In this document: one piece after another, positions 9,373-51,300 of the stretch
Position numbering within the stretch: the first letter of the stretch is position 1
How the letters are laid out: the number at the start of each line of letters is the position of its first letter
Source: Ilex aquifolium
Taxonomy: Eukaryota > Streptophyta > Magnoliopsida > Aquifoliales > Aquifoliaceae
Assembly (NCBI GenBank): GCA_951799425.1
Contig: OX637393.1
Span: 36,033,744-36,097,743 of the forward strand
Length of the DNA stretch: 64,000 bases
Direction of reading: 5' to 3'
Made by a program: the position numbers and the translations under genes
Notes under the pieces: model-generated
Seen by the model: the letters and a program-made list of their open reading frames with translations, nothing else
What the model was told of the DNA's origin: nothing
Databases searched by the model: none

Positions 9373-12283
9373 TATATAGCTGCAATCCTGACCTTGGAGA
9401 TTGTGTCGCATTAAATGTGTCGATAGTCGTGTCTCTGCGTAATGATGGGGACATGCTCTAGATAAACAGAGCCCTGTCTTCCCTTCGTCACTTTTGAATC
9501 CTTTGCCATTTTAGAGACTTTCGTCGGAGAACTCGTCGGAGCATCCTACTACTTGCCTGAAGAACCCACCGTCTTTTTCTAGTCGCCATCGAAGGAGAAA
9601 AGCCCCCAAGCCTTCAGTCCATTCCTCCAGTCTCTGTCTGGTGAGTATTTGCTCTCTTTTCTTCCTTTTTCATTTTTTCGGCGACTGGTCACCTCCCAGG
9701 CCTTCATTTTCTCAGTTCTGAGATCACAGGATAGTCCCCCTGCCCTCCCTTATCGTCGTTTCACGTTCTGAAGTGCCCCTTAGGATTCCCATCTTAGAGA
9801 ACGTACCTTGAACCCCTTTCCTTCCTTCTGTAAGAGATGTCGAGACGTCACTAACCTGTCGCCAAGGTCCAAGAGGCTAGAACCTCTAGGCCGAGGAAGT
9901 ACACAATTAGGGGTGCCCAGCAAATTACCAACTTCAAAACTCTTTACGACATCCCTCGTAGCGTCGGCGTGGATGAGTTTGATCCAACACGTCATCATTT
10001 CAACGTCGGCGCCGACGACGCCATGCCTTTCTACACCAAGGCTATCATGGAGGGAGGATCAGATTCCCCCTTCATCCACTCCTCTTACAGTTCTTACCTC
10101 AGTTTCATATCTTCCCGGGCCAGTGTTGTCTCAACACTCTTAGAATAATCATGGGGGTGGTCGAGCTCAATAGGCGCCTCGGGGTCAACCTTGGTCTCGA
10201 GGACATCCTTTTCTACTACTCCTTACTGAGGGTGATGCCCCAACAAAATTTCTATCTCAAAGCCTGGGACACTTCCATGTACCTTGTAATGTACCTCCCG
10301 GATTCCAACAAAGGGTACAAGGATGACCTGTTTCAGCGGCGACTAGGAGAGGGGGGTCGGCCCCGAGTACAACAACTTGTCTTGCCCCAAGGAGTGGCGA
10401 ACAACACGTACGTCGGCTTCTCCCTTTTCTCAGTCTCCATAGTTTTTGGTGAAATCTATGCAAGTTCTAATGTCTTCTTTTTGTGCAGGAGTCTCCAACG
10501 CCAAAGTTGCTCATCTTCCTCGGAACTTGGTGAATTTTGAAGACTTAGTCATCATCTGGGGGTACATTGGCGACGGGTTTGGCCGCACAGCTCACGTACT
10601 CTTAGACTACGTACCGGGGTACAAGAAGTTCTCCTAGACTCAACCTTACGATCCCTTAAGGTGGTCTGAGCTTTTCTAGCAGAACTTGGAGGAGGACCCT
10701 GACAGGGCCACTGAAGCCGAACTAGAAGGGGCTGCTGAGGGAGGTGAAGAAGAGGTGGCGGAAGTTAGGGATCCTTCCATCACAGTCCACGCTGAGGCTA
10801 GTACTTCTGGGAGGGAGACTTGGCCTGATTTCAACATCCTTCAAAGTCTAGACGAGGAGGACGCGTTTGAGGTAGCAATGTCTCGCAGGCCTCGCATCTC
10901 TCTCGATTTCTTGAATCAGAGGTCCGCCTTGGCTGTCGGGAGGGGCCGGGGGTCCTTCACCAACGACCCTTCACCTCCTCCAAGAAAGACAACCAATATC
11001 AATGCTCATCCCCCTCCCCTGGTGCCGCCGAGATCCACTGGCCTGGGCCAGGTCCGTGACAGGGATCCTCAACTCGAGGAAGAGATGAGGATTAAACAAA
11101 GGCACGATGGAACGGGCCGAGGCAGGAGCCCTCAACAACAACAACAACAACAACATCAACAATAACAGCAAACTTCTACTCCCCTGACGCCGACGTTAAC
11201 CGCTGAGGAGTGGCGCCCCCGGACCCGAGATTGAGAAAACTGGCCGATCCGGGTCAATGACTCCATCGTCCATTCTCCTCACGTGGCTTATGCCGTGAGT
11301 GAGATGCTCATCTTTAGAGCCGATATGGAGGAACACCGGGGGAGGCCAAACAACCAGCTCTTCCGCTCAATCATCCAGAGTTCTCTAGTGGTAAGTTTAT
11401 GTAACAATTCTCCTTGTTTTTCTATCTTCTTTGCATCGGCGTGGCTTTTCTTCCTTCCCTTTAACAGACTGCCCAGCAAATCTCGGTTATTGTCGAGTGC
11501 TTCCATTCCCAGAAGGAGAGGCTTCAACAATCCGAGAGGCTGAAGGCCGAAGCCGAGGGAGCTCTTGCCGCCGCGAGAGAAGACGTGGCTGCCAGGGATA
11601 TTACACTGTCTTCCCAGGCAGCCCAAATTGCCTAGCTCTTGAGGGACGACGAGGCTACGAGGGTCAGCACTGAAAAGCTAAGCGCATCCCTCGCCGACGT
11701 CGAGAGGAAGATAACTGAGGCGACGGAGCGGCTGTCTTCGGCAGAGACAAAGGTTGAGTAGTCAGAGCAGACCTGCTCAACTCTCACCTAGGAGCTGGAC
11801 AGGGTCAGGGCACAAATGAAGGTCGATAAGAAGACGGAGCAAGATATTGTCGATGCCTGCGCCGACGACATCGTGCTTGCCCTTAAAGAAAATAAAAGGG
11901 AGTTCTTCAAGAAGGGCTAGGATGAGGCACTAAAGGCTGCAGGTGTTCTTCCCGAGTCTTCTCTGTTCCTGATGCACTAGTACGTGCCCTCGAAGGCCAT
12001 GCTGTAGGCCGCGACTGAGGTGGCAGCTGAAGACGCTGCAAACGTCCAAGTGCCAGGCTCGGCACAACCTTCTGATTCTGCAGCCTCGGCCCCAGCTGCT
12101 ACTATTCTCGTCCAGGACCCTCCCGCTCCAGAGATGGCGGTGGCCCCTACTCCTACTCCTACTCCTGCTCCTGCCCCGCCGCTCCAGGCCGACACCCCCA
12201 ATGTTGACTCCTCCCCTAGCATTGAAGAGCTATTCGGGAAGTTCTTTATTTTCCTTGTACTCCTCTTCTTTTTTTTTTTGTAG
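9373..12283 (+). pseudogene. Element A antisense gene: coiled-coil 'gypsy-type transposon' protein (broken)
   Basis: Plus-strand coding DNA opposite to gag-pol. A TATA box (TATATAG, 9373-9379) lies upstream. The conserved N-terminal domain starts near LYDIPRSVGVDEF (about 9930) and continues, after a frameshift around 10045-10150, as MGVVELNRRLGVNLGLEDIL and YLPDSNKGYKDDL, matching the homologous gene of element C. Introns with GT-AG ends are visible at about 10409-10488 and 11390-11467. Downstream comes a Gln-rich stretch (CAA repeats, 11130-11165), then a coiled-coil region (SQKERLQQSERLKAEAEGA). From 11468 to 12283 one frame is open except for six TAG codons. From memory the N-terminal domain resembles the plant 'putative gypsy type transposon' family (Pfam Transposase_28); the function is unknown. 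Confidence 0.75.
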
Positions 12284-13235
12284 CCTGGGGGACGCAAAGC
12301 CCTAACTTCTTTTGGAATGAAAAACGACTTTGCTTTATTCATGTGCTCTTCTTTTTTTTTTTTTTTAGCGTACTTGTAACTTCTAACTCCAAAACTCCCA
12401 AGTGTCGTACCTCGGGGCTACAAGAAAGCAACTCTGAAAACTCAAACTTGTGTGCCTTTCGGACAAAGTAAGGTCCAGATGTCCATCGATGCCGAGGGAT
12501 TCGATGAATGTTTATGCCGAGGATAAGTACTGATGGTAGATGACTCCGAGGTGCATTGAAGTCGAGTTTCCCTCACCATCGTTTGGTCTTATGCTTCCTT
12601 TGTAGCAAACTTGGTAGTTGCAGCATGTCCCTCCTGCCTCCATGTACTTTCTCTGGTTATCATCGCCCTCCTTGGTTGTTGAATTTGAGAAGAGTGTTGA
12701 TCTCTCATCCACTATTATCCAGCTCGGACTCCTCGATAAATGGATTGCTGTAACCAAACACTTCCACCTATATACTTGTGCAAGCAGTCACCAATGCCTT
12801 ACATTAAAGTTTTCATTCCCAAACCTATCAATCACTGTCGTAGGAAGACTCTAGGAGGTCCTTGAGCAAGTGACACCGCAATTTTTGCGTCCTTTGTTCC
12901 AACAAAACTAATCAGTCTTGAAGTGTATTAAGAAACATTAGAGACAATCACACCCACACTAGGTGTCGGCCATTTTCCTGAGGTCTCCCTTCTCTTAACT
13001 CCCAGTAGTGAAGTTACCATGGCATCAGGACAGAAAAACGTATCGTTTGGATAACCCATTTTCAGGTCCCATTTACTTAGCCTGGCATGTATTCAGGAAT
13101 CTCAGACAAGATGAACTTTCAACGATTCACGTTTGATTTGCAAAGTACTGCATGACCAGGTATCCCCACTCTAAGCAATGTATTTGATGAGAGGTATTCT
13201 GTCAAGACCTTCAAGTGCTTCCCTCGGGGTCACCC
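12284..13235. other. Element A non-coding spacer
   Basis: Sequence between the end of the antisense gene and the hairpin array. It contains two T-rich runs (12270-12283 and 12350-12366), which on the plus strand follow the antisense stop codon. No reading frame here has coding character. Confidence 0.6.
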
Positions 13236-13695
13236 CCCATCCAGGAGGCCATGTTACCTCTGTCTTCCTACGGATGGAGTGTTGAACTCCGCCTCCGGGA
13301 CCACGTCCCTTCTAGGAGGCAAGCTCTGGTTTCTTTATTTGGAGGCAAGAGTCTTTAGCACTCTGTCTCCAGGGCCATGCCCCCTCCAGGAGGCAATTTC
13401 CTTATTTCTTTATTTGGAGGCAGGGGTCTCCAAGACTTTGCCTCCAGGGCCATGCCCTTTCCAGGAGACAAGCTCATGTTTCTTTATTTGGAGGCAAGAG
13501 TCTCCAAGACTTTGCCTCCAAGGCCGTGCCCCCTGTAGGAGGCAAGCTCCTGTTTCTTTATTTGGAGGCAAGAGTCTCCAACACTCTGCCTCCAGGGTCG
13601 TGCCCCTTCCAAGAGGCAAGCTCCTGTTTCTTTATTTAGAGGCAGGAGTCTCCAACACTCTTACCCCCGGGGCCATGCCCCTACCAAGATAGTAC
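13236..13695. repeat. Element A tandem array, ~74-bp hairpin units
   Basis: TTCTTTATTTGGAGGCA recurs at 13331, 13406, 13480, 13554 and 13628, a period of 74-75 bp, about six copies. Each unit contains inverted repeats: TGGAGGCAA pairs with TTGCCTCCA (clearest at 13489-13520, with AGTCT/AGACT nested inside around a CCA loop), GGGC pairs with GCCC around CAT, and CCTCC with GGAGG. The array lies exactly between the end of the plus-strand antisense gene and the end of minus-strand integrase. The 137-codon frame across it is only the repeat being translated. Confidence 0.92.
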
Positions 13696-13723: not shown

Positions 13724-15043
13724 TCAAAAGTAGTATTTCTTCAAATTCATTACATTCCAAGGTCGTATTACAGCACATCCACCCATGTCTTCTAGTCTAT
13801 ACGATCCGGAGCTTCCCACCGTCGTGACTTTGTATGGTCCCTCCCAGTTGGGTCCCATTTTTCCTTCTGCTGGATCTCGGGTATTTCCCACTACCCTTAT
13901 GAGCACCAGATCGCCTATTTGGAACTCTAGGGGCTTAACCCTCCTATTGTAGAGTCTGGATACCCCCTCTTGGTACTTAGCCAATTTCAAGGTTGCCACT
14001 TCCCTTCTCTCCTCCATGAGGTCCGTATCCAAGCTAAGTTGGCTATCGTTGCTCCCAGTGTTGAAGGCTTGTGTCCTTATGGTAGGGAGTCCTACTTCAA
14101 GCGGGATAACTGCTTCTACGCCATATGCGATGGCATAAGGCGTTTCTCCTATCGAGCTTCAAGGGGTGGTCCTGTTTTCCCAAAGGACGTTTAGGAGTTC
14201 ATCCACCCACTTTTTCTTAGCCTTCTCCAATCTCTTCTTGATTCCATTGATGATTGTCTTGTTCGAGGACTCCGCCTTTCCGTTGGCTTGCGGATACGCG
14301 GGGGTGGAGTAGTAGTTCCGGACACCAAGACGCTCACAAAAAGACTTGAAAGGCCCGCCGTTGAACTGGGTGCCGTTGTCTGACACGATCGCCCGGGGGA
14401 CACCAAACCTTATCACTATGTTCTTCCACACGAACTTCTTGGTGTCCACGTCTCTGATATGAGTCAAGGGCTCCTCCTCGACCCACTTTGTAAAATAGTC
14501 GGTTCCTACTATCAGGAACCTCTTGTCTCTAGGAGCCCACAGGAGGGTCCAACCAGGTCAAGCCCCCATTAAGAAAACGACCAAGGACTCGTCAGGGGAT
14601 GCAAGTCACCAGTTGGCTGCCTAATGACTGGGGTGAACCTTTGACATTGATCGCATTTTCGGACGTAAGCCTGTGCGTCTTTCTACATCCGAGGCCACCA
14701 ATACCCTTGGGACATGATTCGATGGGTCATGGATCATCCACCTGAGTGCCCCCCCCCCACATATTCTCTCATGTACCTCATACAGGAGAGGTTCTACTTT
14801 ATCTTCGTGGACGCAAAGCAGGTACGGTCCGAAGAATGACCTTCGGTACAACTTCTGATCCAGGGAGACCCAAAACCTTGGGGCCCTTAACTTTATCTTT
14901 CTAGCCTCCTTGGGGCACCCAGGGAGTTCCCCCGACAGGAGGAACTTGAGTAACGGGTCAGTCCAGTTGGGGGACTCCTCTCCTTCCTGGATGACTGCCA
15001 CTCTGGAGGCCTCATCTATGCTGGAGTTGGAAAGGTACTCCAC
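13724..15043 (-). pseudogene. Element A integrase (broken)
   Basis: Minus-strand integrase in three open pieces. The N-terminal piece has the zinc-binding region (WMIHDPSNHVPRVLVASDVE and surrounding, frameshifted). The core piece reads FGVPRAIVSDNGTQFNGGPF followed by YYSTPAYPQANGKAE, with the second Asp and the Glu of the DDE triad visible. The C-terminal piece ends GPYKVTTVGSSGSYRLEDM and then WNVMNLKKYYF, the usual C-terminus of Tat-lineage integrase without a chromodomain. It would insert element cDNA into host chromosomes; frameshifts between pieces prevent this. Confidence 0.9.
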
Positions 15044-20076: not shown

Positions 20077-20990
20077 TGTGCGCGACGATTTTCGCACAAT
20101 AAAGAAATAGAAACAGATATCTCCCTTGGTGAGCTCGTGTTCGCCTCGAGAGTCGACAATCTCGTGCCAAAGAAAGGCACAAGATGGCCAAAGGGGGCCT
20201 AAGGAGTGGTGATGAATTGCTCTAGGGGCTGTCCGATCGATCTTGACGGCGAAAAAAAGGTTCCTGGTACACAGAAAATGGGTTAGAAGGGCGCTAGAGT
20301 GTTTTTCGGCGTATCCCCTCTGACGATCAAGTCAGTTCGAGACTCATCATTACTGATGGTTTAGACAGTAGGTAGTGTCCAGACATGGGGCAGTGTGCCT
20401 TCTATTTTGCATGGGGGAGACCCCGTTATTAATTGCCCGGGTTTTCAAGCATTTAATGCTCTTTCTCCAATGTAGAGGCACTAAATGCTCGGGTCCTGGA
20501 GCATTTAATGCTCCTTCTTCTCGGCTTCCTAAGCCATCATGGATGTCCCATCAACTGAGGGTTTATTAAATGCTTGCTTGAAGTTGTCGTGTGTCAGCAG
20601 GGGTATTATTATCCATTTACCCCTCATCCTGTACTTTATGCCACGTGTCTAACTCCTCTTGGGTGAGTGTCTTGTTCTTCCTGCCATTCTGACTTCATTG
20701 GGGAAGGTAAACCAATGATTCATAGCATGTCCTTGAGATTGATGGGTTGTAACTATCAGTGACCCGTCCATAAGAAGAGGTGACGTGTCCACAACTAGTC
20801 CTTAGAGTCCAGTAACGTATAGAATGTGTGGATCCATCAGGGAGCAAGGGGTGCCGAGGGCACGTGGCTCCATCAGAGAGAAGGATGTGCCTCGGTGCCG
20901 AGGACACGTGGTTTCATCAGAGAGAAGGATGTGCCCTCGGCGACGAGGACACGTGTTAAAATCCTATCCTGTCTCAGAAGTGTTCCATCA
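20077..20990 (-). repeat. Element A 5' LTR (914 bp, promoter deleted)
   Basis: Matches 8276-9293 across its length but lacks a block of about 97 bp corresponding to 8537-8633. That block contains the minus-strand TATA box and the expected transcription start, so this 5' LTR cannot initiate normal genomic RNA. It is flanked on the right by the target duplication GGTAG. Confidence 0.95.
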
Positions 20991-22518: not shown

Positions 22519-23081
22519 CTTCCTGTTAGTAATATACTCTAAAACCAATCTAAAACCAATCATATAGATGATGTTTTGGGGTTGTACTAGCAACATTCAT
22601 TACTTAATTAAATAAAAGGGCAAATTTATTTATCATGTTTCTGCTTTATTTCATTTTAATATACATAATATAGTCTATAGAATATAAGTTAAGAAAATAG
22701 TTTCTCAAGGAGTTGAGCAGAAGAGACATATACTTCTTAGTACTTAACTCTTAGATGTTCATAGTCATAGGATTACTATGTGGGTACTATGTAATCCGGA
22801 TAGACTAGCATACACTATATTTATTCATATTTGATGTGAGGTGACTCGTTCAAGTCACTAGTGTAGAGACATTGAAGCAGTTCTGTAGGTGTTTGTTAAA
22901 GAACAAATACACTGACCGTGACCATTGACTAACGTAGGATTTTTCATATGGAGTTTTACATACCTGTTAATGTTAAATCTTAAAGTTATAGTTATGCAAC
23001 TGATCCTTAGGCTTGAGACACCATGATTGTCTTGTGCATGGACTTCTATGCTTTAACTGTACAACATATTTATTTACTAAC

Positions 23082-23787
23082 TGATGATTCCTCGGAAATC
23101 AATCTCCCAGGCCTGAGTTGATTAGGCCCTTCTAGGATCTTATGAGATGGGTTTCAGAGAAGTTGAAATTAAGCGATGACAAACAAGCAAATGTGAGTGG
23201 TTCACCCTAGCCAAAAGACTTGGGTTACGTCCACTGTAATGGAGGCTCTTGCTCCTGGGTTGTGTATATTGATTCCAACTGATTACAAGAGGATAATTGG
23301 CTTTGGGCCAACAACGATGCTCTCTACTGAGGCTGTCCTAGGGTTCTTGATGAAAATACCAGCTAGAAGACGGGGAAGAAGACCCAGGAATTCGATCCCC
23401 TTTCCTCCTTTTACTGTTCTATTTATATGGTGTCCGCTCCTAGGGTTTTGTTGTCTCTGCTGTTCTTTCCTTGATCTTGTGGGGACCGTTCGTCCTTTCT
23501 CTGCAAGCCACTCTGACCGCCGGCGATTCTGTGCCCACGATCGCCTGGGCTCGTTTGACACTACCCCTCTGTTTCTGCAGGGAGTAACTCTGAGAAATCA
23601 GAGCCGGTTTCCTTTGTCCTTGGAGCACGTGGCGTAACAGGCTTTAACTCGGGTCAGGGGCTAAGAAACAAAGGCGGGCCGGTTGGGACCACTCCTGTTT
23701 GGGCTTCGGGGCTCTCATCCAACATTTTCTGGAGGTCTTTGGGCTTGGTCCTAATGGCAGCCCAGGCCCAAAAACCTATTCTCATCA
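23082..23787 (-). repeat. Element B 3' LTR
   Basis: 706 bp from TGATGATTCC to CTCATCA on the plus strand, followed at 23788-23805 by the complement of the polypurine tract (CCCCCAGCCCC). A G-box CACGTG lies at 23626-23631 in U3. Confidence 0.97.
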
Positions 23788-24048: not shown

Positions 24049-24472
24049 CGGGGAAGTCCCCTCGCCTACGTCGTTCTTGCGTTTTTTGAATTTCCTTGCG
24101 TTTCTCTTTCCTTCGTTGGCTCTCGAGGTGCTTTGCTTCAGACTTTCAGGCGGCTCTTAGGATTTCTGCGTCCTTGGTCATTTTCTGCATCTAGCACCCT
24201 AACTAGGTACGTCTTTCCTCTTTTCTTTATTCTTGCTCGATCTGGATCCCTTTAACCCTCCTTGGTGGGGTTTTGGGTTTCGCTTCTTGATATGGAGGTT
24301 TAGTTACTTCAGAAACCATTCCGACGACCTTTCTCCCCTTATGTGTTTTGTGGACCATCCTACTTCGCTTTGGATATCCTTCCTTCGAAGTCGGTGTCTG
24401 AGACCTGCATTTTTGACGGACTGTGCTTTACACTTTCCTTCCCTTCACTCCGGCTTACGGCCTGGATCTTTG

Positions 24473-26652
24473 ATGGGGAAGTGGGTCGTTTCCTCCTCAG
24501 AATCGGATTCCGAGGATCTAGTAGACGAGGAGGTCGAGATAAGTTCTCAGAGCGGTAGTTCTGTTGATAGGGCCGCCTCCAGGTCCGCTCACGGAGTTTC
24601 TGCCTCTGGGTCCGCCCTTGTAGAAGAAGCTCGTCCTCTTTCCTCCCTTCCTCCTGATTCTTTTGTTACGCCGAAGACTAAGAAGTCCAAACCGGCTCCT
24701 CCCCCAATTCCTAGGAAAAGAGCTCGTCGGGACCAGGCCGACCTGGCCTGTTGCGCAACATCGACTCCCAGTTGTCTCAGCGACGAGGACTTAGGCGAAC
24801 TGAGGCGGGAGTATTGCTTTCCCGACTCCGTCCTCTTACACTCTCCTGAAGAACACGAGAGGTGCAATTCTTCTGTTCCCAGATTGGTCTGTTTTTACGA
24901 ATCCGCCTTCCGAGCTGGTTTGCGGTTCCCTGTTCATCCTTTTATCCGGATCGTTCTTTCTTTTTATAACATATATCCTGCCCGGCTTTCTCCAAACGGA
25001 TGGGGTCTCCTGATCGGATTTCTTGTCCATTGGTTGAAGAGTGGGAATGACTCTCAGCCCTCCATTAATGAATTTGCCTCCCTTTTTCAACTTAAGTCCT
25101 CCCCTTCTGCTGGTTTCCTTTATTTTTCGAAAAGGGTCAGGGCGAGGAATCTGATCACCGGGCTTCCTTCTTCCAACAAAGGGTGGAAACCCAAGTTCTT
25201 CTTTGTTAGAGGTGATTCCTGGGAGCTTTCCGGGAAACCAGGGGACGTCCCTCTCATTCCCCGGTCTTGGGGGGCCCCAAGGAATATAGGTAAGGCCCTT
25301 CAGTTTAGCTGCATCTTTTTCCTTCCCTATTCTTCTTTTTCTGACTTAACTTCTGATGTGCAGATTACCGTCCTGTCCTTGGGGTCGAGGAAGCGGCAAG
25401 GGTTGCTAGAACCGAGGATTTGGGGTCGCAGTCCTTCTTCGATTTGGTGACGGATGAGAATTTAGCCCTCTACGAACTCGGGCCTCCAGTTGAGCAACCC
25501 TCAGTGCCTTCATCACCCCCTGCTGCCCCAACTGCCCCCATGAAGAAAGATTTGATAATGGTGGTATTCTCAGATGCCGAGAAGTCGAGGAAGAAAAGGA
25601 AGGTGGTGAAGGATTCCCAGCTGTTATCTACTGGTGCGTCGGTATCCTACCCCCCACCTGCTACTTCTGTGCAGAAGGAAGAGACCCTCCTTCCCCGCGA
25701 GGATGCGCCTCCCCCCCTGCTCCCTGTTGAGGCTTCTAGGGGCAAATCATCGACCGAGGGAGGTTCAGAAAAAGGACGCGAGGTTCCAGCAGTTCTTCCT
25801 TACTTTACCCCTCAGGAAGGTGGGAAGGTGGGCCTCGCTCGATTTGCGTCTAAGGATCAAGGGGATGGTTTCCTGCGTGACCCTGAGGTCGCAGTTGCTG
25901 CCTTGTCCGACCTCGTCTCAACTTCAGATCCCAGGGCAGCCATGCGGGTTCCTTTCGACAAGAAGGTCGATCGCGCTATCCGGGGCATGGCAGAGGTACT
26001 TTCTATCCTTGTCTTTCCTCTTCTCCTGTATTTCTTTATGCCAAGGTCTCCAGGGATTTTTTGTTTGACCCTTTTTTCTTCTCAGACGCTCGCCTGCGTA
26101 AAGATGCTAGGATTCCACTACAACGAGGAGCTTTCAAAGGCAAAGGAGTCCAGGGCTGCCCTGTTAGTAAGCAAGGAGGCTGCAGAGGAGAAGGTGAAGA
26201 TTTTGGCCTCAGAGGCCGCTGAATTGAAGATGATTAACGACGAGATGGATGCTCGCCTTCAGGATTTTGTCAAGGTCATGGACTCCAAGGAGAACAAACT
26301 CAAGGCCGCCGAGGCTGACCTGGTTGCCAAGGATTCCGAGCTGTTGTCTTTGCGGTCTCGTGTTTCGCAGCTCGAGAAAGACTGCGCCTCCGGCTTTGTG
26401 AAGGGTTTTCTAAACCTTAAGGATCAACTTGAGGAGGCTCATCCTGACCTGGACTTGGATCCTTTTGTACCAGTGTTGGACTCCGAGGAGGCCGCCGTGG
26501 TGGCTGAGGAGGCCGGGACCTCTGATCTCCCTGAGGGTGTGGCTCTTGATGCGGAGAAGGTGCCTGGACTTGTGGTGGCAGCGGCGGAGGGACCATGCAT
26601 GCCAGCAGGGGCATCTGGTGAGGGGGCAGGTGATGAAGAGATTGCTTCTTGA
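24473..26652 (+). CDS. Element B antisense gene B1, coiled-coil protein (~671 aa)
   Basis: An open gene on the strand opposite to gag-pol. Exons 24473-25289, 25364-25995 and 26086-26652 join in frame through GT-AG introns of 74 and 90 bp, giving about 671 residues. Order: an acidic Ser/Glu-rich N-terminus, a basic linker (KKSKPAPPPIPRKRARR), a conserved domain (RREYCFPDSVLLHSPEEHER to FFVRGDSWELSGKPGD), a Pro-rich linker with a second basic patch (SRKKRKVV, a possible nuclear signal), then a heptad-rich coiled coil (residues about 430-560) and an acidic tail. The start is the first ATG of the clean coding stretch; an in-frame ATG near 24341 is an alternative. It resembles, from memory, plant 'putative gypsy type transposon' proteins. 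Function unknown. Confidence 0.75.
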
Positions 26653-27149: not shown

Positions 27150-27227
27150 GGCCTCCGGGGAATGATTGTTCTTCACGAATTGTGTAAAGTCCTAGCTTCT
27201 GAAAAGACCTCTATGATTCCTACATTC

Positions 27228-29191
27228 ATGGCTTCTCCTCCCTCTTCATACGAAATCATGGAGCGAGTTTTTGGCCATGTTGAAACAAGCGAGATCGATG
27301 GGGACGAGGCTCAGCTCCTTGCTAGGCGCTTCGATTTTCCCCCCGGTGTTATCGTGCGTTCTGCGGATTTGCGTAGGTTTCACAGCTCGGTGGTTGATGA
27401 AGCTTGTTTTTTCGAGGACCCCTTCTTGTTGGGGCTTCAATTTCCCCTTCCTGGCCTGATACGAGACGTTCTTCACTTTTTCAGCTTCTGTCCTGCCATG
27501 CTCCTCCCATCTGGCTGGGCGGTGTTAATGACCTTTACTGCGGCGTGGGAAAGGATGTTTCCTCAGGCTAGGGCTAACTTGAAAGAGTTTCTTCACTTTT
27601 TCCGCCCCGAGGAGGTATCCGAATTCTACCACTTTGTCCCTAGGCGAGGGGGTGAGATTCCCATCCGGGATCTCCCGCCGAGCCCTGAGGGGTGGATAAG
27701 GAGATATTTCTTCATCTCTGGAGACGGCTGGGAGTTTGGTTCCCAATTCCCGGGTTCTGTCAGAGTTCCTATCGCCTGGGGGAGCCGTAGAAACTTAAGT
27801 AAGCTATTTACCTTAATTTCTGTTGACGCTTGTGCTTGTGTACTAACAGTGTCACCGGTTCCTAATGCAGGAGAGCTCCCGCCCCTTGACTCTTCCGAGC
27901 AAGCCCGAGTTGACCAAGCCCGCGCTCGTCTGCCCTTTTCTTATGTTGAGCTGATGCACCCCGGGGTCCCCTTGGCGTCAGGTGATTGCATATAGACAAT
28001 GTCTTTTATCTCTCTGCTCCTTAGTTCGGAACCTTGCTAAGTTTTTGATCTTGTCTGCGTAGTTCCTTCCTACTTGGTGACTCAGCGCCACATGATCATG
28101 GAGCGCGTAGATGAAAGAAGGCGGGGTAGGGCCGTAGGACCTCCGGCGAAGAGGACGAGGTTGGAAGTGGGTACCACTTCTGGCGAGGTCCCCGTTCCGG
28201 CCGCCGATGCTCCTGTTCCTGAATCCAGTGTTCCTGTTCCTTCACCCGAGGCCCCGAGGTTGACATCTGAGCCAGTCGTCAGTGAAGCCACTGCGGGTAC
28301 CGTGGCGATTGATCCCGTTGGAGGGCCTGTTCGGCGAGGCACTGCTTTATCTACTGCAGCTGGTTCCAGCTCGGCCCGTGCCCCCCAGGCTTTCATTGCT
28401 GACCCAGAGGCCGGCCTACTTCGGGATGTGAGTTTGAGCAGCCGGGCTCTGATGGAGTTGATTCCCCGAGCCGACCTGCGTCGCTCTGTAGACCTTCCAT
28501 TTCAAGTTCGAAGCCGTGATGCTCTTCACGCCTTGCTCGAGGTATGCCTTGGTGCTTTTATCTCTATTTCGAACTCCTCGGTTTCTTACATTGTCCCTTA
28601 TGTTTCCAGTCGGCAACGCATGTTTGTGCTCTTGGGAGGGAAATCTTTATGCTGAGGAGCGACGTTCAGAGGAGAAATGCCGAGGTTCTTGACTCCCGTC
28701 GGCAAGGCACCGAGCTGTTGGACTAGGGCTTGGCCACTGAGAGGGAATTGGAGCAGGTCCTTGAACAGCGGGCCCATACTTTCAGACAGCTGATTGCCAG
28801 CACTTCTGCTGAGGTGTCTCTAAGGGAGGAGCTGGCTCGTTTAAAGGAGGAGCGGGAGGCTGAGGAGGAGAGACTGCTAAACGCGGCCGTCGCCCACACT
28901 CTTTTGGAAGATGAGCTGAAGGAGTCCCGGGCTGAGGTATCTGAGCTGACCAGGTCTTTAGCTGCTGAACGTCGGCTCGTAGAAGATCAACGGAAAGAGC
29001 TTGAGAAAGCAAGATTGGAGGCGGCTAGGGCTTTTGTTGACGGGTTCTTCAATTTCGCTGACCAGGCGATGGAGAGATTCCCCGACCTAGACCTTGAGCA
29101 ATTTCAGCCAAGGTTTGATGCTTCTTCAAGTGGCTGTGCTGCTGATGTTACTCTTGCTCCCGACGCCACTCCTCTTGCAGATTGGTCTTGA
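27228..29191 (+). pseudogene. Element B antisense gene B2, one premature TAG
   Basis: Second copy of the antisense family. Exons 27228-27798, 27871-27981, 28063-28541 and 28610-29191 join in frame through GT-AG introns of 72, 81 and 68 bp. The conserved domain runs from LARRFDFPPGVIVRSADLRR to RRYFFISGDGWEFGSQFPGS. It is followed by a Pro/Ala/Val-rich linker containing VGPPAKRTRLE, then a long coiled coil (EELARLKEEREAEEERLLNA, later ERRLVEDQRKELEKARLEAA) and an acidic end. The only break is TAG at 28724-28726 (LLD-stop-GLATERE), in place of a likely CAG. An upstream in-frame ATG lies at 27213. Confidence 0.75.
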
Positions 29192-32171: not shown

Positions 32172-32257
32172 AGGGAGAACTTTTGGGAAACTTTTGTATC
32201 TCTTCGTTGATAAAATCGGATCTTTTTACAATAATCTTCCATTCCTTGCTACAGACT

Positions 32258-37827: not shown

Positions 37828-37848
37828 GTTCCCACAGACGGCGCCAAC
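37828..37848 (-). promoter_or_regulatory. Element B primer-binding site
   Basis: On the minus strand TTGGCGCCGTCTGTGGGAA directly follows the 5' LTR. It shares this with elements C and D. The leading TGGCGCCGT matches the 3' end of plant tRNA-Asp as I recall it. Confidence 0.9.
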
Positions 37849-38554
37849 TGATGATTCCTCGGAAATCAATCTCCCAGGCCCGAGTTGATTAGGCCCTTCT
37901 AGGATCTTATGAGATGGGTTTCAGAGAAGTTGAAATTAAGCGATGACAAACAAGCAAATGTGAGTGGTTCACCCTAGCCAAAAGACTTGGGTTACGTCCA
38001 CTGTAATGGAGGCTCTTGCTCCTGGGTTGTGTATATTGATTCCAACTGATTACAAGAGGATAATTGGCTCTGGGCCAACAACGATGCTCTCTACTGAGGC
38101 TGTCCTAGGGTTCTTGATGAAAATACCAGCTAGAAGACGGGGAAGAAGACCCAGGAATTCGATCCCCTTTCCTCCTTTTACTGTTCTATTTATATGGTGT
38201 CCGCTCCTAGGGTTTTGTTGTCCCTGCTGTTCTTTCCTTGATCTTGAGGGGACCGTTCGTCCTTTCTCTGCGAGCCACTCTGACCGCCGGCGATTCTGTG
38301 CCCACGATCGCCTGGGCTCGTTCGACACTACCCCTCTGTTTCTGCAGGGAGTAACTCTGAGAAATCAGAGCCGGTTTCCTTTGTCCTTGGAGCACGTGGC
38401 GTAACAGGCTTTAACTCGGGTCAGGGGCTAAGAAACAAAGGCGGGCCAGTTGGGACCACTCCTGTTTGGGCTTCGGGGCTCTCATCCAACATTTTCTGGA
38501 GGTCTTTGGGCTTGGTCCTAATGGCAGCCCAGGCCCAAAAACCTATTCTCATCA
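37849..38554 (-). repeat. Element B 5' LTR
   Basis: 706 bp, 7 substitutions from the 3' LTR (six transitions, one transversion) and no gaps. The right end CTCATCA is followed by the target duplication CTAAC. Confidence 0.97.
38187..38194 (-). promoter_or_regulatory. Element B LTR TATA box
   Basis: TATAAATA on the minus strand in the 5' LTR, positioned to start genomic RNA near 38160. Confidence 0.7.
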
Positions 38555-44459: not shown

Positions 44460-45148
44460 TGTAGAGGCAAAAAATAGAGATTACCTCTGACAAGATGAAA
44501 TTAAGGATTATGATTTATGAGATTTTCTGAACCTGATCTCCCAGCCTTCTCCCTGCAAAACGAACAAACTGCCCAAGATCGAAGTCCTTCGATCGAAGGC
44601 ACTCCGATGCTTAAGTCAGTACTTGAATGATATGAACTGTGCGAAGACTAGGAGAGTTCAGCGTCCCTTTCACCTTGGTTTCGCGTTCCTTTTATAGCTT
44701 GTATTCCCCTTAGGGTTTCCGTTAATTCAGAGGCAAGGTGGCACACCTTCCTTTCTTTCAGTGTTTGAGTTTGGGAAGTTTCTAATCCTTCTCCAATAAT
44801 TTCTCTGAATGCCTTTATTCTAGCAGATCTCGTTCATCCGATTTGCTTAAGTTTTAGGCAAATCTTTATGTATCTTCTGCTTTCGAAAAGGTCGGACTTT
44901 CTTAATGCCGAGCATATCCTCTGTTTGCCGATCCATTAACGAGCTCGGTTTGGCACGACATCCCTTTCTCTTGCCGTGCTGATCTCATTCAATAGCTCGG
45001 CTGAGTTCAAGCCGAGCTATTCCATTGTTCGGATCGGATAAGGGACACTTACGAATTCTTCATTTGTAAGCACGTGTTTAGTCTTTTCAGCCTCACGTGA
45101 GCACATTAAATGCCAGGACACGTGTAACGCTGGGGTCTAACCCCTTCA
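44460..45148 (-). repeat. Element C 3' LTR
   Basis: 689 bp from TGTAGAGGC to CCCCTTCA on the plus strand, followed by the polypurine tract complement TTTGCCCCCAGA. Contains a TATA box (TATAAAA, minus strand, 44690-44696), the palindrome block 44577-44599, a 12-bp perfect inverted repeat (44991-45021) and three CACGTG G-boxes (45071, 45094, 45119). Confidence 0.97.
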
Positions 45149-45290
45149 TTTGCCCCCAGAAAACGTCTGACAGACGTTCTCTTCGTCTGTCAGCCGTTTT
45201 CCTTCTTAATCATTATTGCCTTGGGCTCTGCGTCTCTCAGTTTTGGCGGTACATTCATTGTACGCAATCTGTCTTTTGAAATTCTTCTCC

Positions 45291-45298
45291 TATATAAA
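45291..45298 (+). promoter_or_regulatory. TATA box of element C antisense gene
   Basis: TATATAAA 113 bp upstream of the ATG at 45404, just inside the 3' LTR boundary on the internal side. It faces the antisense gene. Confidence 0.7.
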
Positions 45299-45403
45299 CC
45301 GCCTTTTCTTTCTTTTTGTACACTCTGCACTTCTTGCTTTGCTCACTCCCTCTCTTGCATCTTTTTCATTCTGTGTTCATCCTTGCGTGCCCTGTCTTTG
45401 TCA

Positions 45404-47349
45404 ATGGCTCCTCTTCAGCCTTCGGATATCCCAGCATTCAGAACTAAGTACAACATCCCTGATGACGTGGAGGTCAAGGTTGCCGGGAAGGATGAACCTT
45501 TGGTAGGTACGAGGGAATCAATCCCCATTCCCACTAGGGCCATCACTGAAGGGGGGGTGAGATTCCCTCTTGACCCCCTTCTCATCTGGGTGTTGTCAGC
45601 TGCCAAACTGTGCCCTCTTCAGTGCTGCCTGAATCTCTTCAGGATCGTCATGGGGGTAGCTTCTTTGAACAAAGTCTTAGGTTTAAGCCTTGGGCTATGG
45701 GAGATCCTCTACTGCTATATTCTGAAGGCAGCAGGGGACAGCTTCTATCTATCTGTAAGGAAGAAGGATCGGTATCTGGTCACCCATCTTCCAGATTCCA
45801 ACAAGGGCCATGAGAACGACATTGTGTTCGTGTCTGGGAACTGGGAGTACGCTGCCGGAGTTGCACCATCCTATCGTTGTCCCTATGAAGAGGGCATGCC
45901 AGGTATTTGATGTCTCGCTCTACTTGAGTTGCTTCTTTTATTACTCATTTTTCAAATTCTTGTCTTGCTGTTGTTTTTGTGCAGGTGAGACTGTGAAGGG
46001 TAGAGTCCCAGACTCCTCTGTTAAGTTAGATCAACTTTAGAGGGTCTGGGATTTCAATGAAACTCTGTTTTGCCGAGCCGCTCATACTTTGCTCGGTTAT
46101 GTCCCGACTTATTCGTCTTTTATTGCGGTGCCGAACCGTCCCAATGCCACACTGGCAGCAGATCGGGAAGCCATCCAGGCTGCTAGGGAGCAAACCCCAC
46201 GAGCCCGCAAGAAGTCTTCCCTTGCTGCTTCTGGGCGCAGAACCGTGAAGAACTTCCTGGATTTCCTGTCTACTGTTGAACCGAGCCTAACTTCTGATCC
46301 TACTCCTCCACCCGTCATACCTTCGATAACTGTACTGGACGATGCCGATGCCGAGGTCCCTGCTGAAGATGTTCCATCAGCTGCTGAGGTCGGTCCGAGC
46401 AGCGAAGCACCAGACTTAGTTAGAACAACGGATCTTTTGATACCAGAGGGATTGGAGCCTTTGAATCTTGTTCAGTCCCCTGCACCCGAAGATGACTCGC
46501 TCTTTGAGCTCGCCGAGGCCCCAGCATTTAAAAGGCGAAGGACCGCTGAAGCCGAACCGAGTGCTTCTCCAAAGCCATCTGAGACCCCTTTCCGTCCTAT
46601 TCTCAGATCAAAAAAGAAAGAGATCACAACCAAGGACTCTGCCATTGAAGACTTCAATGTCGCAGTTGGGATCGCCAGGGGGGTTATTTTGCCTCGGGAC
46701 CTTGCTATGAATGAGGCACTGACTGATGACGAAGTGTCCCGCCAAGCAATTCAGCACATGGTGTTGGTAAGTTTTTGTCTTCTCTCTTTGGCAAAATTTG
46801 TAAGTTAAACTTAGCCTTTTTCTGCTCCCCAACTTACAGGGTCTTCAAAAAGTACACGAGGTCGGGGCCAGGATAGCGAGGAAGGATAAGGCCATGAGAG
46901 ATGCAATCCATGCTCGGGCCTCAGCGCTCGCCAAGAAGGAGTCGATAGATGAAGAGTATGCCAAAGTCTGTGAAGAGGCTAAGGTTCTGCAGGCTGACAA
47001 TCAGAGCCTTACCGAAGAGAACCGCCAGCTGAAAGCAGATATTGGCAAACTTAAGGATTCTGAACATGAAGCCATCTTGGAGCTTTCCCAGTCCCAACTT
47101 GACTATGCCAGTATCCTTGAGGAGTTCGATAAATTCAAAGCCGAGGCAAAAGTTAGAGAAGATGCCGCCTATGATGAAGGGGTTGAAAAAGCAGAGAACG
47201 ATCTATCTTTGCAGATTCCCCAGCTGAAGGATGCGTTCTTTAGCAAGGGTTGGCATGCTGCACTGATCGCTGCTGGGGTCCCTTCTTCGTCCGAGCTTTA
47301 TTCCCAGCACTCCCCTCCTAGCTCATCTCAGCCTCCTGAAAGTACTTGA
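45404..47349 (+). pseudogene. Element C antisense gene, coiled-coil protein, one TAG
   Basis: Plus-strand gene opposite to gag-pol. Exons 45404-45902, 45985-46766 and 46840-47349 join in frame through GT-AG introns of 82 and 73 bp (about 596 codons). The conserved N-terminal domain runs from FRTKYNIPDDVEVK through LFRIVMGVASLNKVLGLSLG to YLVTHLPDSNKGHENDI. A basic linker (RARKKSS, later FKRRRT) and an acidic Pro-rich region follow. The C-terminal third is a coiled coil (ADNQSLTEENRQLKADIGKL), ending SQPPEST. The single break is TAG at 46038-46040 (LDQL-stop-RVWDF), fitting loss of a CAG. Without it the gene would be intact, so it was under coding constraint until recently. Confidence 0.78.
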
Positions 47350-47519: not shown

Positions 47520-48290
47520 TGTCCATTTAGTCTATCCAAAGAGCTCGTCATTTTAAGTGAGCGGTTCCTCATAGGAACTTTTTACTTGTTTGATTCATAG
47601 GAATTATGTCCTGCACGGCACTTTCTTGTTAGAGTTTGGTTCCTTATAGGAACTATTTACTAATTCGACTTTCTAGAAGTTATGGCCTGCTCGGCACTTT
47701 CTTGCTAGTGTTTGGTTCCTTATAAGAACTATTTACTAATTCGACTCTCTAGAAGTTATGGCCTGCTCGGCACTTTCTTGTTAGAGTTCGGTTCCTTATA
47801 GGAACTGTCTACTCCTTCGATTCTCTAGAAGTTATGGCCTGCTCGGCACTTTCTTGCTAGAGTTCGGTTCCTTATAGGAACTGTCTACTCCTTCGATTCT
47901 CTAGAAGTTATGGCCTGCTCGGCACTTTCTTGCTAGAGTTCGGTTCCTTATAGGAACAGTCTACTCCTTCGTTTCTCTAGAAGTTATGGCCTGCTCGGCA
48001 CTTTCTTGCTAGAGTTCGGTTCCTTATAGGAACAGTTTACTGGTTCGATTCTCTAGAAGTTATGGCCTGCTCGGCACTTTCTTGCTAGAGTTCGGTTCCT
48101 TATAGGAACAGTCTACTCCTTCGATTCTCTAGAAGTTATGGCCTGCTCGGCACTTTCTTGCTAGAGTTCGGTTCCTTATAGGAACAGTTTACTTGTTCGA
48201 TTCTCTAGAAGTTATGGCCTGCTCGGCACTTTCTTGCTAGAGTTCGGTTCCTTATAGGAACTGTTTACTTGTTCCCTTCTTTGTAATAGT
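47520..48290. repeat. Element C tandem array, ~76-bp hairpin units
   Basis: TTATGGCCTGCTCGGCAC recurs at 47680, 47756, 47832 and onward, a period of 76 bp, with about nine full or partial units. Each carries GTTCCT-TAT-AGGAAC (6-bp stem), a GCC/GGC pair in GGCCTGCTCGGC, and TTC-TCTA-GAA. Early copies are more diverged than later ones. It lies between the antisense gene stop (47349) and the integrase end (48363). Confidence 0.93.
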
Positions 48291-48362: not shown

Positions 48363-51300
48363 TTAGAAATAAAATTTTCTGAGGTTTGCCGTGTTCCAAG
48401 GGCGCGGTACGGCCTTTTGGTCAGGCGTTTCAAGCTCATAGTATCCGCTGCCTCCAACTCTGGTGATTCTGTAAGGTCCTTCCCAGTTTGCTCCGAGCTT
48501 TCCGTCTGCTGGGTTTTTCGCCGATCCCAGCACACGTCTGAGTACTAGATCCCCCACTGCAAAAGAACGAGGGTTCACATTCTTGTTATAGGCTCGGGAC
48601 ATCTGACTTCGGTATGAGGCCATTCTTATTGCGGCCTGATCCCTCTTCTCCTCGAGTAGATCCAAATCTCCACTGATAACAGCATCGTTGCTACCCGTTT
48701 CGACCAGCTCGGCTCTTAGAGTTGGTAAGTCAATTTCAAGTGGAATAACAGCCTCCATGCCATATGCCAAGGCGAAGGGGGTCTCTCCAGTTGAACGCCG
48801 AGGTGTGGTTCGGTATGACCACAGAACACTAGGGAGCTCCTCTACCCACCTTCCTTTGGCATTCTCCAGCTTCTTCTTGATTCCATCCAAAATCGTTTTA
48901 TTGGAGATTTCGGCTTGCCCATTACTTTGAGGATAGGCCGGGGTGGAGTAGTAGTTACGAATACCATACTGCTGACAGAATGCTTTGAAAGGCCCACTAT
49001 CGAACTGAGTGCCGTTATCCGATTTAAGTGCGTATGGAATGCCGAACCTGGTAATAATGTTCTTCCAGACGAATTTCCTTGTATCAGTGTCCCTGATGTT
49101 AGCCAGCGGCTCGGCTTCAATCCACTTCGTGAAATAGTCGGTAGCCACCAACAAGTACTTCTTATTGCTCGGGGCCCGGGGCAAAGGACCAACAATGTCC
49201 AATCCCCATTGGGCGAATGGCCATGCGCTTGACAAAGGATGGAGCTCGTTTGATGGCTTTCTTGGGATCGGAGAGAACCTTTGACATTTTTCACATCGCC
49301 GAACGAACTGCTGAGCGTCCTTCTGCATGTAAGGCCACCAGTATCCTTGTGAGATGGCTCGGTGAGCTAAAGACCTGCCTCCAGTATGTGCTCCGCAACT
49401 TCCTTCATGTATTTCTGACAAAAAGTCCTGAATTAGGCTGGGATGTACGCATTTCAAGTACGGACCCCCAAATGAGCGTCTGTATAGCTCGTCTTTCGGG
49501 GACAACCAAAATCTGGTCGCTTTCAATCGTAGTTTGCGAGCCTCCTTTTCATCCTGGGGCAATTCACCAGTTTTCAAAAAACCAACTATCTGATCCATCC
49601 AGCTCGGACCAATAATGTTGCATAATACTTCGTCCGTGCCGGACAAATGGATGCTCGGCTCTGCTAGAAACTCAACAGTAATTGATCTCTCGGATTCCTG
49701 CTCAACTGCCGAGGCCAACGAAGCTAAAGCGTCGGCGTGAGAGTTCCTAGCTCTACCCACTTGCTGGATTGAGTACTCTGCTATCTTGCTCAATTCTTTC
49801 TCCGCAACTGCCTGATATGCTATCATCCTTTCATCTTTAGCCATGTACTCCCCTATTATCTGATTCACTACTAACTGTGAGTCAGAAAATATTTGGAGCC
49901 TCAACGCACCGAGCTCACTTGCCAGCCTTACACCAGCTATCAAGGCTTCGTACTCTGCCTCATTATTGGAAGCGCCAAATCCTAACCTTATTGCTTTCTC
50001 CAGTATGCACCCGTCTGGACTAACAAGAATGATGCCAACTCCTGCACCTTTCTGGTTTGAGGAACCGTCAACTGATAGAGTCCAGTTGCAGTCGAGTTCT
50101 GCTAGTTTATTATCATTGGCCCCTTCCTGGGATCTTTCTGGCTGAAATTCAGCAATGAAGTCTGCAACTATCTGTCCCTTGATGGCTTTCCTCGGCTCGA
50201 ATCGGATGTCAAACTCCCCTAGCTCAACTGCCCATTTGGCAATACGCCCAGATAGGTCGGCTTTCAGAAAGAGTGACCTAAGCGGCTGGTCAGTTAGGAC
50301 TGTGATCTGATGGGCCTGGAAGTAGTGTCTAAGCTTTCTTGCCGAGCTAACCAGCGCCAGTGCCAATTTCTCCAACGAGGTGTATCTTGATTCTGCGTCT
50401 AAGAGCACCTTACTCACATAGTAAGTAGGTTTGAATTTGCCATTATCATTCCTCATTAAAGCTCCGCTGACAGCCTGTTTTGAAACAGCCAAATAAAGGA
50501 ATAGATTCTCCCCGGGTAAGGGAGTGGATAAGATCGGCGGGGATGCCAAATACTCTTTTAGTCTTGCAAAAGCCTCTTCACATTCTTGGTTCCAGTGCGC
50601 CCCTTTCTGCCCTTTAATGGACTGAAAAAAGGGTCTGCATTTGTCAGAGGCTCGGGAGATAAATCTCCCAAGCGCTGCAGCCATGCCGGTCAATCGCTGG
50701 ACCTCTTTAACCGTCCGAGGTGACTGTAACTCAGTAATTGTCTTTACCTGCTCGGGACTTACCTCTATTCCGCGGTGTGTAACAAGAAATCCTAAAAATT
50801 TCCCGGAGCCCACACCGAACGCGCACTTGGATGCGTTCAACTTCATGTTATACTTTCGGAGGACCTCAAAAGTTTCCTTGAGGTCGGCACAATGGGAACT
50901 GGCCTTTTTACTTTTTATTACCATATCATCAATATAAACTTCAACAGTACGACCAAGCATATTTGAAAACATTCGGGTTACTAACCTCTGGTATGTCGCC
51001 CCGGCGTTCTTTAGTCCGAACGGCATCACTCTATAGCAATACGTCCCTTCGGGGGTTATGAAGGCAGTTTTCTCTTGGTCCTCCTCGGCGAGAGGGATCT
51101 GATGATATCCTCTGAAAGCGTCCAGGAAACTCATCTGCTTGTGCCCCGCTGTTGTATCCACCATCTGATCTATCTTTGGCAGTGGAAAGCTGTCCTTTGG
51201 ACAAGCTTTATTCAGATCTGTAAAATCGACACACACCCTCCATTTACCATTCTTTTTCTTCACCACCACTGTGTTCGACAGCCAAGTCGGGTATTTAACT

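What the first reader, a model, noticed from the sequence alone, without database searches (positions are those of the whole stretch)
9373..48363. A shared module in three gypsy elements: antisense gene(s) converging on gag-pol at a tandem hairpin array
Elements A, B and C all have, between integrase and 3' LTR, plus-strand coiled-coil protein gene(s), and exactly at the convergence with minus-strand gag-pol a tandem array (13236-13695, 30855-32171, 47520-48290). The arrays share no obvious sequence or period (about 74 bp, compound ~16+24 bp, about 76 bp), yet every unit contains inverted repeats. Antisense extra ORFs are known in some Tat-lineage elements. A position-conserved, sequence-variable hairpin array at the junction is not something I know to be described. 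It could end or insulate two converging transcripts, prevent long double-stranded RNA, or be processed itself.
Basis: partly seen in the sequence, partly recalled or inferred. Interest (0 to 1): 0.8.

Follow-up and report, generated by a model that had tools for sequence, protein, structure and literature searches.

The report
Hairpin chains just after retrotransposon pol
In three families of plant jumping genes, the stretch just after the last enzyme gene is rich in short hairpins whose two arms change together; the repeat arrays and the opposite-facing genes beside them were already known, but the hairpins look like a new and testable RNA feature.

Summary
In detail: A, B and C are Tat/Retand-type Gypsy elements with related antisense genes (TRP28 type) and a tandem array 35-93 nt past the pol stop. 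That arrangement is known: Vicient 2025 reports antisense TRP28 ORFs and family-specific arrays, often adjacent to pol, in about half of recently active Retand clusters. Here, 11 of 28 relatives picked without regard to arrays have one close behind pol, so it is not obligatory.

What appears new is the hairpins. In 17 of 22 representatives the 250 nt after pol hold more perfect hairpins than shuffled sequence (C itself does not). Relatives with no array there still show about three times the expected number, and a control stretch further on about 1.4 times. In all three clades stem arms change together. Arrays look like tandem amplification of an older hairpin module.

Wobble pairs favour the gag-pol strand; folding energies do not settle it. 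My best mechanism, inferred only, is an RNA shield behind the stop codon of an mRNA with a very long 3' UTR, like the Rous sarcoma virus stability element. A neutral origin is the main rival. Termination of both transcripts is unlikely: genomic RNA must read through the array.

The parts
8276..9293 (-). element A, 3' LTR (gag-pol is on the minus strand); includes an LTR-internal 44-bp hairpin array 9123-9255
20077..20990 (-). element A, 5' LTR (92-94% identical to the 3' LTR in two blocks)
9983..10540 (+). element A, antisense ORF fragment related to the C antisense protein (broken gene)
13286..13689 (.). element A, 74-bp hairpin array
13724..14158 (-). element A, C-terminal integrase reading frame; stop at 13724-13726
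23079..23787 (-). element B, 3' LTR
   Evidence: 99.0% to 37846-38554
37846..38554 (-). element B, 5' LTR
24233..25450 (+). element B, antisense ORF with PF04195 (TRP28), domain about 24887-25096
   Evidence: E 2.7e-10
25420..26652 (+). element B, antisense ORF, weak leucine-zipper match below the curated cut-off
27162..27995 (+). element B, second antisense ORF with sub-threshold PF04195
   Evidence: 19.5 bits against cut-off 26.2
28730..29191 (+). element B, antisense ORF with coiled-coil-like sub-threshold matches
30855..32171 (.). element B, compound hairpin array (two hairpins: stems AGACT/AGTCT and GAGCT/AGCTC, read in pol sense)
32172..32257 (-). element B, leader between pol stop and array; the motif TATTGTAA is seen in all 9 B-type sequences
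   Evidence: read by eye
32258..33097 (-). element B, integrase C-terminal part of pol and its stop
44460..45151 (-). element C, 3' LTR
   Evidence: 98.6% to 53973-54665
53973..54665 (-). element C, 5' LTR
45221..45910 (+). element C, antisense ORF related to the A and B TRP28-type proteins; no Pfam match of its own
46089..46808 (+). element C, antisense ORF without Pfam match
46894..47349 (+). element C, antisense ORF with sub-threshold bZIP/coiled-coil matches
47562..48274 (.). element C, 76-bp hairpin array (stem GTTCCT/AGGAAC, loop ATA in pol sense)
48363..51638 (-). element C, pol; the stop codon lies at the low end

Best explanation
The stretch just past the pol stop codon of these Tat/Retand elements is a structured RNA module: a chain of short stem-loops kept by selection on base pairing. 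SHOWN: location, excess of hairpins in most representatives, persistence in most of the array-free ones, arms that change together. INFERRED: that selection and not only mutation keeps the pairing; that the acting molecule is the gag-pol (genomic) RNA; and that its job is to shield the stop codon of an mRNA with a roughly 3-6.5 kb 3' UTR (the antisense genes plus LTR) from nonsense-mediated decay, the way the Rous sarcoma virus stability element does. A nuclear-export element is the closest functional alternative.
For: Hairpin counts (stem >=5, loop 3-7) in the 250 nt after pol exceed 200 dinucleotide shuffles at p<=0.05 in 17 of 22 representatives. In the 11 representatives without an array in that stretch the sum is 41 against 13.2 expected (7 of 11 significant), while their 700-950 nt control gives 21 against 14.6 (sums mine). 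In 18 A-type loci, which do carry the array, the observed/expected ratio is 3.41, 3.16, 2.32, 1.46 in successive 250-nt bins from the stop and 0.31-1.54 in the other bins except the last, near the LTR (1.94). Compensatory change, B: stem I middle pair A-T 77, G-C 21, one G-T, one C-A, 7 other mismatches; WC 501 against 465.0 sd 3.4 in shuffles; stem II 868 against 829.3 sd 4.7. A, pol-sense structure: 2574 WC against 2488.7 sd 9.2 in 171 units from 31 loci. C relatives: 58 of 80 flank positions pair around a shared AAG-TRC-CTT core against 30.8 sd 5.8, none of 2000 shuffles reaching it. The hairpin GGAGGC..GCCTCC of A is GGAAGC..GCTTCC in L079, L083 and L084. Wobble on the pol strand against wobble on the other strand: B 53 to 24, A 29 to 3 in locus majority rows and 243 to 165 in all units; unpaired A columns show no such mutational bias (32 to 37). 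Position tight behind the stop, with a long 3' UTR (Vicient 2025: 2,933-6,566 bp), is what a stop-codon insulator needs; the Rous element sits immediately behind the gag stop, and the pol 3' UTR of that virus may act likewise (PMC2925335 abstract). Six chromovirus pol ends show no significant hairpin excess (p 0.09 to 1).
Against: No expression or probing data. Whole-region folding energy does not single out the pol strand (mean z -2.10 sense, -1.85 antisense; sense lower in 14 of 22; B folds better antisense, -4.57 against -1.57). Five of 22 representatives, C of the window among them, show no significant hairpin excess, and the A control stretch at 700-950 nt does (4 against 1.06, p 0.015). 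RNAalifold does not reward the covariation: its covariation term is +0.51 (unfavourable) for the A locus rows and +0.47 for C relatives, and on all 171 A units it keeps hardly any pairs (-3.98 kcal/mol). A structure from the other strand in the same A alignment also shows some covariation (434 against 429.6 sd 1.4), while an earlier other-strand structure showed none (2253 against 2252.9): the A result depends on the structure chosen, and the one used was found by folding the pol strand. B stem I covariation is mostly a difference between subfamilies (within-locus shuffle 497.4 sd 1.7 against 501). Hairpins also occur in other arrays (7 of 20 clusters), as expected if hairpins merely promote duplication. 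One chromovirus control folds strongly (L091, z -4.25), and for two controls the stop may not be the true pol stop. Copies are related, so shuffle scores overstate independence: there are three clades. In a plant virus, lack of structure behind the stop gave decay resistance, though a readthrough structure behind another stop also did (PMC6277124 abstract). The function itself was not tested.
Confidence: 0.37

Rival explanations
1. Neutral by-product. Hairpins in the untranslated stretch make reverse transcriptase pause and switch template, which duplicates units and corrects imperfect palindromes. Arrays and perfect stems arise without function and persist because the region is free of coding constraint.
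For: Tandem arrays elsewhere in the same sequences also carry strong hairpins (7 of 20 clusters with z <= -2). Abnormal strand transfer was proposed for such arrays (Vondrak 2020 citing Macas 2009). Copy number and period vary among relatives (71-77 bp, about 3-12 copies). Palindrome correction also gives paired changes. RNAalifold's covariation term is not favourable.
Against: It predicts hairpins throughout non-coding parts, but in A-type loci the excess is confined to the first 750-1000 nt past pol and to the LTR end. Relatives without an array there mostly keep chains of hairpins (7 of 11 significant). Correction is strand-neutral, yet wobble pairs lean to the pol strand. In B and in the C relatives loops are kept while stems change; in the A clade loops change too.
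Confidence: 0.32
2. RNA export or packaging element. The chain acts in the genomic RNA as a multi-copy transport element (like those of IAP, MusD or simple retroviruses), or as a dimerisation/packaging signal.
For: Structured, repeated, in the 3' part of the genomic RNA. Mouse IAP and MusD elements carry structured export elements, and export of plant LTR-element RNA has not been studied directly (PMC12786077 passages). Same strand evidence as the best explanation.
Against: Such elements need not sit tightly behind a stop codon. No shared loop or motif among A, B and C seen by eye. No Rfam family matches window 8200-56100.
Confidence: 0.15
3. Terminator or insulator of the antisense gene: the array stops antisense transcription from entering pol and so limits double-stranded RNA.
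For: Exact place where the antisense gene meets pol. B units fold better as antisense RNA.
Against: Wobble pairs lean to the pol strand in A and B. Hairpins with a following U-run are a bacterial, not a Pol II, terminator (established knowledge). Relatives without the array exist.
Confidence: 0.1
4. DNA-level palindromic binding sites of the element's own antisense-encoded TRP28/coiled-coil dimer.
For: TRP28 was predicted to bind DNA (Vicient 2025). Antisense proteins are related in all three elements and some have coiled-coil-like stretches (sub-threshold). Palindromes with fixed spacers suit dimers.
Against: Within one element stems differ widely round the same centre in the C relatives and B stems alternate A-T with G-C, which a sequence-specific protein would not be expected to tolerate; complementarity is what is kept.
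Confidence: 0.05

Closest known systems
Retand lineage of Tat Gypsy elements (Vicient 2025, PMC11963269; Kejnovsky 2006 and Monfort 1995 seen as titles in reference lists only)
   Same: Long POL-3'LTR region, antisense TRP28 ORFs, family-specific tandem arrays often next to pol
   Different: Hairpins and compensatory change are not mentioned in what was seen: the word starts 'hairpin' and 'inverted' occur 0 times in its main text; its supplements were not seen
Hypervariable 3' UTR arrays of Ogre/Tat elements that seed satellite DNA (Vondrak 2020, PMC7004042; Macas 2009 as cited there)
   Same: Short arrays downstream of gag-pol, variable monomers
   Different: No structure claimed in the passages seen; here units carry covarying stems
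Rous sarcoma virus RNA stability element (PMC2925335)
   Same: RNA element immediately behind a retroelement stop codon in an mRNA with a long 3' UTR; structural features matter (title and abstract)
   Different: No sequence kinship tested; function in the plant elements untested; no array or antisense gene there is mentioned in the abstract
IAP RTE / MusD MTE / retroviral CTE export elements (PMC12786077 passages)
   Same: Cis-acting structured RNA of LTR elements
   Different: Mammalian; not defined by nearness to a stop codon; no shared motif found

Membership tests
Tat/Retand Gypsy retrotransposon | LTR pair enclosing gag-pol with integrase last | tested here: met
Tat/Retand Gypsy retrotransposon | antisense ORF with TRP28 (PF04195) between pol and 3' LTR | tested here: met
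   B over cut-off; C and A only by similarity to each other and of C to B
Tat/Retand Gypsy retrotransposon | additional archaeal-type RNase H (aRH) between RH and INT; placement in the RT tree | not tested
   feature taken from PMC6317226 passages; no tree was built, so Retand as against Ogre is not proven
known POL-3'LTR tandem array | array of >=3 copies in POL-3'LTR, next to pol, family-specific | tested here: met
   A, B and C of the window; A-type copies; 11 of 28 relatives picked without regard to arrays
RSV-like RNA stability element | located directly behind a stop codon | tested here: met
RSV-like RNA stability element | protects RNA from UPF1-dependent decay | not testable with these tools
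   needs a reporter assay
curated RNA families | match to any of 4227 Rfam models at gathering score | tested here: not met
   window 8200-56100, 0 matches

The most novel reading that the evidence does not exclude
Tat/Retand elements carry a previously undescribed class of cis-acting RNA: chains of stem-loops directly behind the pol stop codon, fast-evolving in sequence but held in pairing, which let a gag-pol RNA with a giant gene-bearing 3' UTR survive host RNA surveillance. The long-known hypervariable arrays, and the satellite DNAs derived from them, would then be amplified remains of this RNA module.
Probability: 0.2. Interest if true: 0.8.

Novelty: new variant of a known kind. Interest (0 to 1): 0.55.

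Why it matters
Vicient 2025 states that origin and function of these arrays remain unknown. If they are amplified RNA hairpins under pairing selection, the array stops being junk, there is a reason why it sits beside pol, and a direct reporter test becomes possible. It would also tie a source of plant satellite DNA to an RNA function of the parent element, and suggest how elements with antisense genes downstream of pol keep a very long 3' UTR.

Tried and rejected
Fold of the plus-strand (antisense) A unit as the conserved structure: two neat hairpins in the majority unit but no covariation (158 of 205 hits used; 28 loci); dropped for the pol-sense structure (171 of 232 hits used). In one search the locus-majority units have z <= -1 on the pol strand in 26 of 28 and on the other strand in 20 of 28, but where the other strand folds it is often the more stable one.

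Poly(A) signals in the array as a common theme: A units contain TTTATTT (AATAAA on the pol strand), B and C units do not (read by eye).

Kissing loops or a shared loop motif: loops differ between A, B and C (by eye). Arrays near the TRP28 domain: none with period >=10 in 30 TRP28 loci of about 3.2 kb, most of them one subfamily. Whole-region MFE as strand evidence: inconclusive. A known RNA family: none. A paper on enod40 insertions from transposable elements looked related but was not (passages).

Wider survey: 93 planned 10-kb regions round TRP28 hits could not be fetched, so the survey rests on 28 short stretches chosen by integrase similarity (10 of the 150 hits scored, 8 of 150, 10 of 150; each search scored only 150 of 13,000-20,000 candidates), plus 28 A-type loci chosen by array similarity. 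No other plant genome could be searched here. Arrays of 3 or more copies that C relatives have further from pol (L062 at 594, L064 at 411, an 11-bp run in L061 at 532) were not counted as close behind pol.


Full report
What was checked. The window lies in an 800-Mb plant genome (G000:C3). It holds three Gypsy elements with gag-pol on the minus strand, each enclosed by LTRs. Pol stops at 13724, 32258 and 48363, so the arrays begin about 35, 86 and 89-93 nt behind the stop. The plus-strand genes are related: B has the Pfam domain PF04195 (TRP28), and the C protein matches A (E 1e-26) and B (E 5e-11). The integrase ends of A and B are 56% and 47% identical to that of C. These are distinct families with one gene plan.

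What was already known. Vicient 2025 (PMC11963269; outline, passages and part 1 of 2 of section 11) surveyed recently active Retand elements: antisense coding regions in all clusters, TRP28 in 97%, tandem arrays in about half, most often next to pol or next to the 3' LTR, with variable units of 8-100 bp, origin and function unknown. Vondrak 2020 (PMC7004042, passages) describes hypervariable arrays downstream of gag-pol as common in Tat elements and as a source of satellites. The arrangement in the finding is therefore not new. The word starts hairpin and inverted occur 0 times in the main text of the Vicient paper. Searches (8 to 20 titles listed for each) showed no title or abstract on covarying hairpins behind pol. 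The library holds open-licence papers only, so this is weak evidence of absence; Macas 2009, Kejnovsky 2006 and Monfort 1995 were not read.

Are arrays the constant feature? Relatives were picked by integrase similarity, not by arrays: 10 of C type (80-87% identity), 8 of B type (88-97%) and 10 of A type (78-83%). An array of three or more copies within about 200 nt of the pol stop is present in 0, 8 and 3 of them, so 11 of 28. Two C relatives have one further on (L062 at 594, L064 at 411 of the fetched stretch) and L061 an 11-bp run at 532. In the B type the array starts roughly 90-200 nt past the stop. Among the 28 A-type copies picked by the array itself, the integrase end was found in 26, and there the array edge is 31-53 nt from the last matched pol codon.

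Are hairpins the constant feature? In 22 of the 31 sequences available (A, B, C and 28 relatives; 9 near-duplicates or close relatives left out), I counted perfect hairpins (stem 5 or more, loop 3-7) in the 250 nt behind pol. 17 of 22 exceed 200 dinucleotide shuffles at p<=0.05; the five that do not are L080, L081, L085, C itself and L066. In the 11 relatives without an array in that stretch the sum is 41 hairpins against 13.2 expected, 7 of 11 significant; in their control stretch at 700-950 nt it is 21 against 14.6 (sums mine). Among the other 11, the control stretch is significant in five: B, L071, L073, L076 and A (4 against 1.06, p 0.015). In B and L076 the array still runs through that stretch and in L071 and L073 through part of it; in A it does not. 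Along 18 A-type loci, all with the array, the ratio of observed to expected is 3.41, 3.16, 2.32 and 1.46 in the first four 250-nt bins behind pol. Elsewhere it is 0.31-1.54, rising to 1.94 in the last bin towards the LTR (14 loci). Six chromovirus pol ends (two nearly the same, one with only 57 nt left, two with an uncertain stop) show no significant hairpin excess, though one folds strongly (L091, z -4.25). The coding end of pol in A, B and C shows none.

Do the stems change together? B type: two hairpins per unit. The middle pair of stem I is A-T 77 times (six loci) and G-C 21 times (three loci), with one G-T, one C-A and seven other mismatches. Watson-Crick pairs number 501 against 465.0 (sd 3.4) when partners are shuffled across loci, but 497.4 (sd 1.7) when shuffled within loci, so that signal lies mostly between subfamilies. 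Stem II has 868 against 829.3 (sd 4.7) across and 836.5 (sd 4.7) within loci. These instances were selected by loop and by nearness to paired references, which favours pairing; without the loop filter stem I still has 536 against 500.6 (sd 3.7) and stem II 1073 against 1045.1 (sd 5.6), again among sequences near a paired reference; counting each distinct sequence once, the excess shrinks to 101 against 94.4 (sd 2.8) and 188 against 184.7 (sd 3.5). A type, structure found on the pol strand: 2574 against 2488.7 (sd 9.2) in 171 units of 31 loci, and 469 against 459.4 (sd 2.5) in 27 distinct locus majority rows; a structure from the other strand in the same alignment gives 434 against 429.6 (sd 1.4). 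An earlier structure, from folding the other strand in another register, gave no covariation. RNAalifold's own covariation term is not favourable (+0.51 for A rows, +0.47 for C relatives), and on all 171 A units it keeps hardly any pairs. The long A hairpin reads GGAGGC..GCCTCC in A, GGAAGC..GCTTCC in L079, L083 and L084, and the pattern matches once in L077, L078 and L080; it did not match in L081, L082, L085 and L086. C relatives: right behind pol stand three to six perfect hairpins 18-35 nt apart in 9 of 10 (one in L066), round a shared AAG-TRC-CTT centre with different but complementary flanks; in L060-L068 except for L061 the stop codon lies within the first predicted hairpin. Of 80 flank positions in 20 distinct units 58 pair, against 30.8 (sd 5.8) with shuffled partners and at most 50 in 2000 shuffles. 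Three clades thus show the same behaviour with unrelated sequences. Within clades, copies are related and the shuffle scores are not probabilities.

Which strand? G-U pairs on the pol strand outnumber pairs that would be G-U only on the other strand: 53 to 24 in B (stems chosen as symmetric palindromes), 29 to 3 in A locus rows and 243 to 165 in all A units (structure chosen on the pol strand, so biased). Unpaired A columns show no mutational bias in that direction (32 to 37). Folding energy does not decide: mean z of the 200 nt behind pol is -2.10 on the pol strand and -1.85 on the other (control stretch -1.03 and -1.42), the pol strand is better in 14 of 22, and B is clearly better on the antisense strand. 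I lean to the pol strand without calling it settled.

How it most likely works. The pol stop of such elements is followed by 2.9-6.6 kb before the 3' LTR (Vicient 2025), a 3' UTR long enough to invite nonsense-mediated decay. An element directly behind the stop is the known remedy in Rous sarcoma virus: a 155-nt minimal element immediately behind the gag stop, with hints that the pol 3' UTR does the same (PMC2925335, abstract and outline). The hairpin chain has the right place and character. Against this, unstructured sequence behind a stop gave resistance in Turnip crinkle virus, although a readthrough structure behind another stop also did (PMC6277124, abstract and outline). A nuclear-export role is the next candidate (PMC12786077 passages). 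Termination of the gag-pol transcript at the array can be set aside, because reverse transcription needs RNA that reaches the 3' LTR (established knowledge). A purely mutational origin, with hairpins seeding template switching, is the strongest rival: arrays elsewhere also bear hairpins (7 of 20 clusters). Local confinement, survival without arrays and the wobble lean speak against it as the whole story.

Verdict. The array beside an antisense gene is known biology. The hairpins behind pol, more widespread than the close arrays in the sequences examined and changing by compensation, appear to be the new part, shown here in one plant genome, in three clades, by sequence alone.

Noticed in passing
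window 38620-40009 and 55242-56049: LTR-like direct repeats about 97% identical (three blocks) flank element C: C seems nested in a fourth, related element, whose LTR is 76-79% similar to C's in one block
   Followed up: no
window 9123-9255 and 20850-20955: A 44-bp array with a strong hairpin (CCTCGGTGCCGAGG) inside both LTRs of element A; L010 and other A-type loci have a similar 45-bp array
   Followed up: partly
window 2236-7536: Copia-like element with 92.6% identical LTRs, each with an internal 89-bp duplication; its type is judged by eye from the ORFs
   Followed up: no
B-type loci L069-L076 and window 32172-32257: Leader between pol stop and array with recurring motifs TATTGTAA (9 of 9 by eye) and a variant of TTATCAATGAA; L075, L076 and L070 also have a small hairpin about 5 nt behind the pol end whose arms differ but pair
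   Followed up: no
L060 and L062-L068 (C relatives), first 60 nt: The pol stop codon lies inside the first predicted hairpin, formed with the last codons of pol
   Followed up: partly
L029-L058: 22 of the 30 best TRP28 loci share the score 52 bits and a 360-aa open frame, a sign of a recently multiplied family
   Followed up: no
window 61452-62300: Minus-strand ORF that looks like a WRKY transcription factor by eye
   Followed up: no
L059 (C relative) 695-796: Two copies of a 53-bp unit built on the palindrome AACCTTCCGGAAGGTT; the stretch 720-920 nt past pol there folds with z -8.45
   Followed up: no
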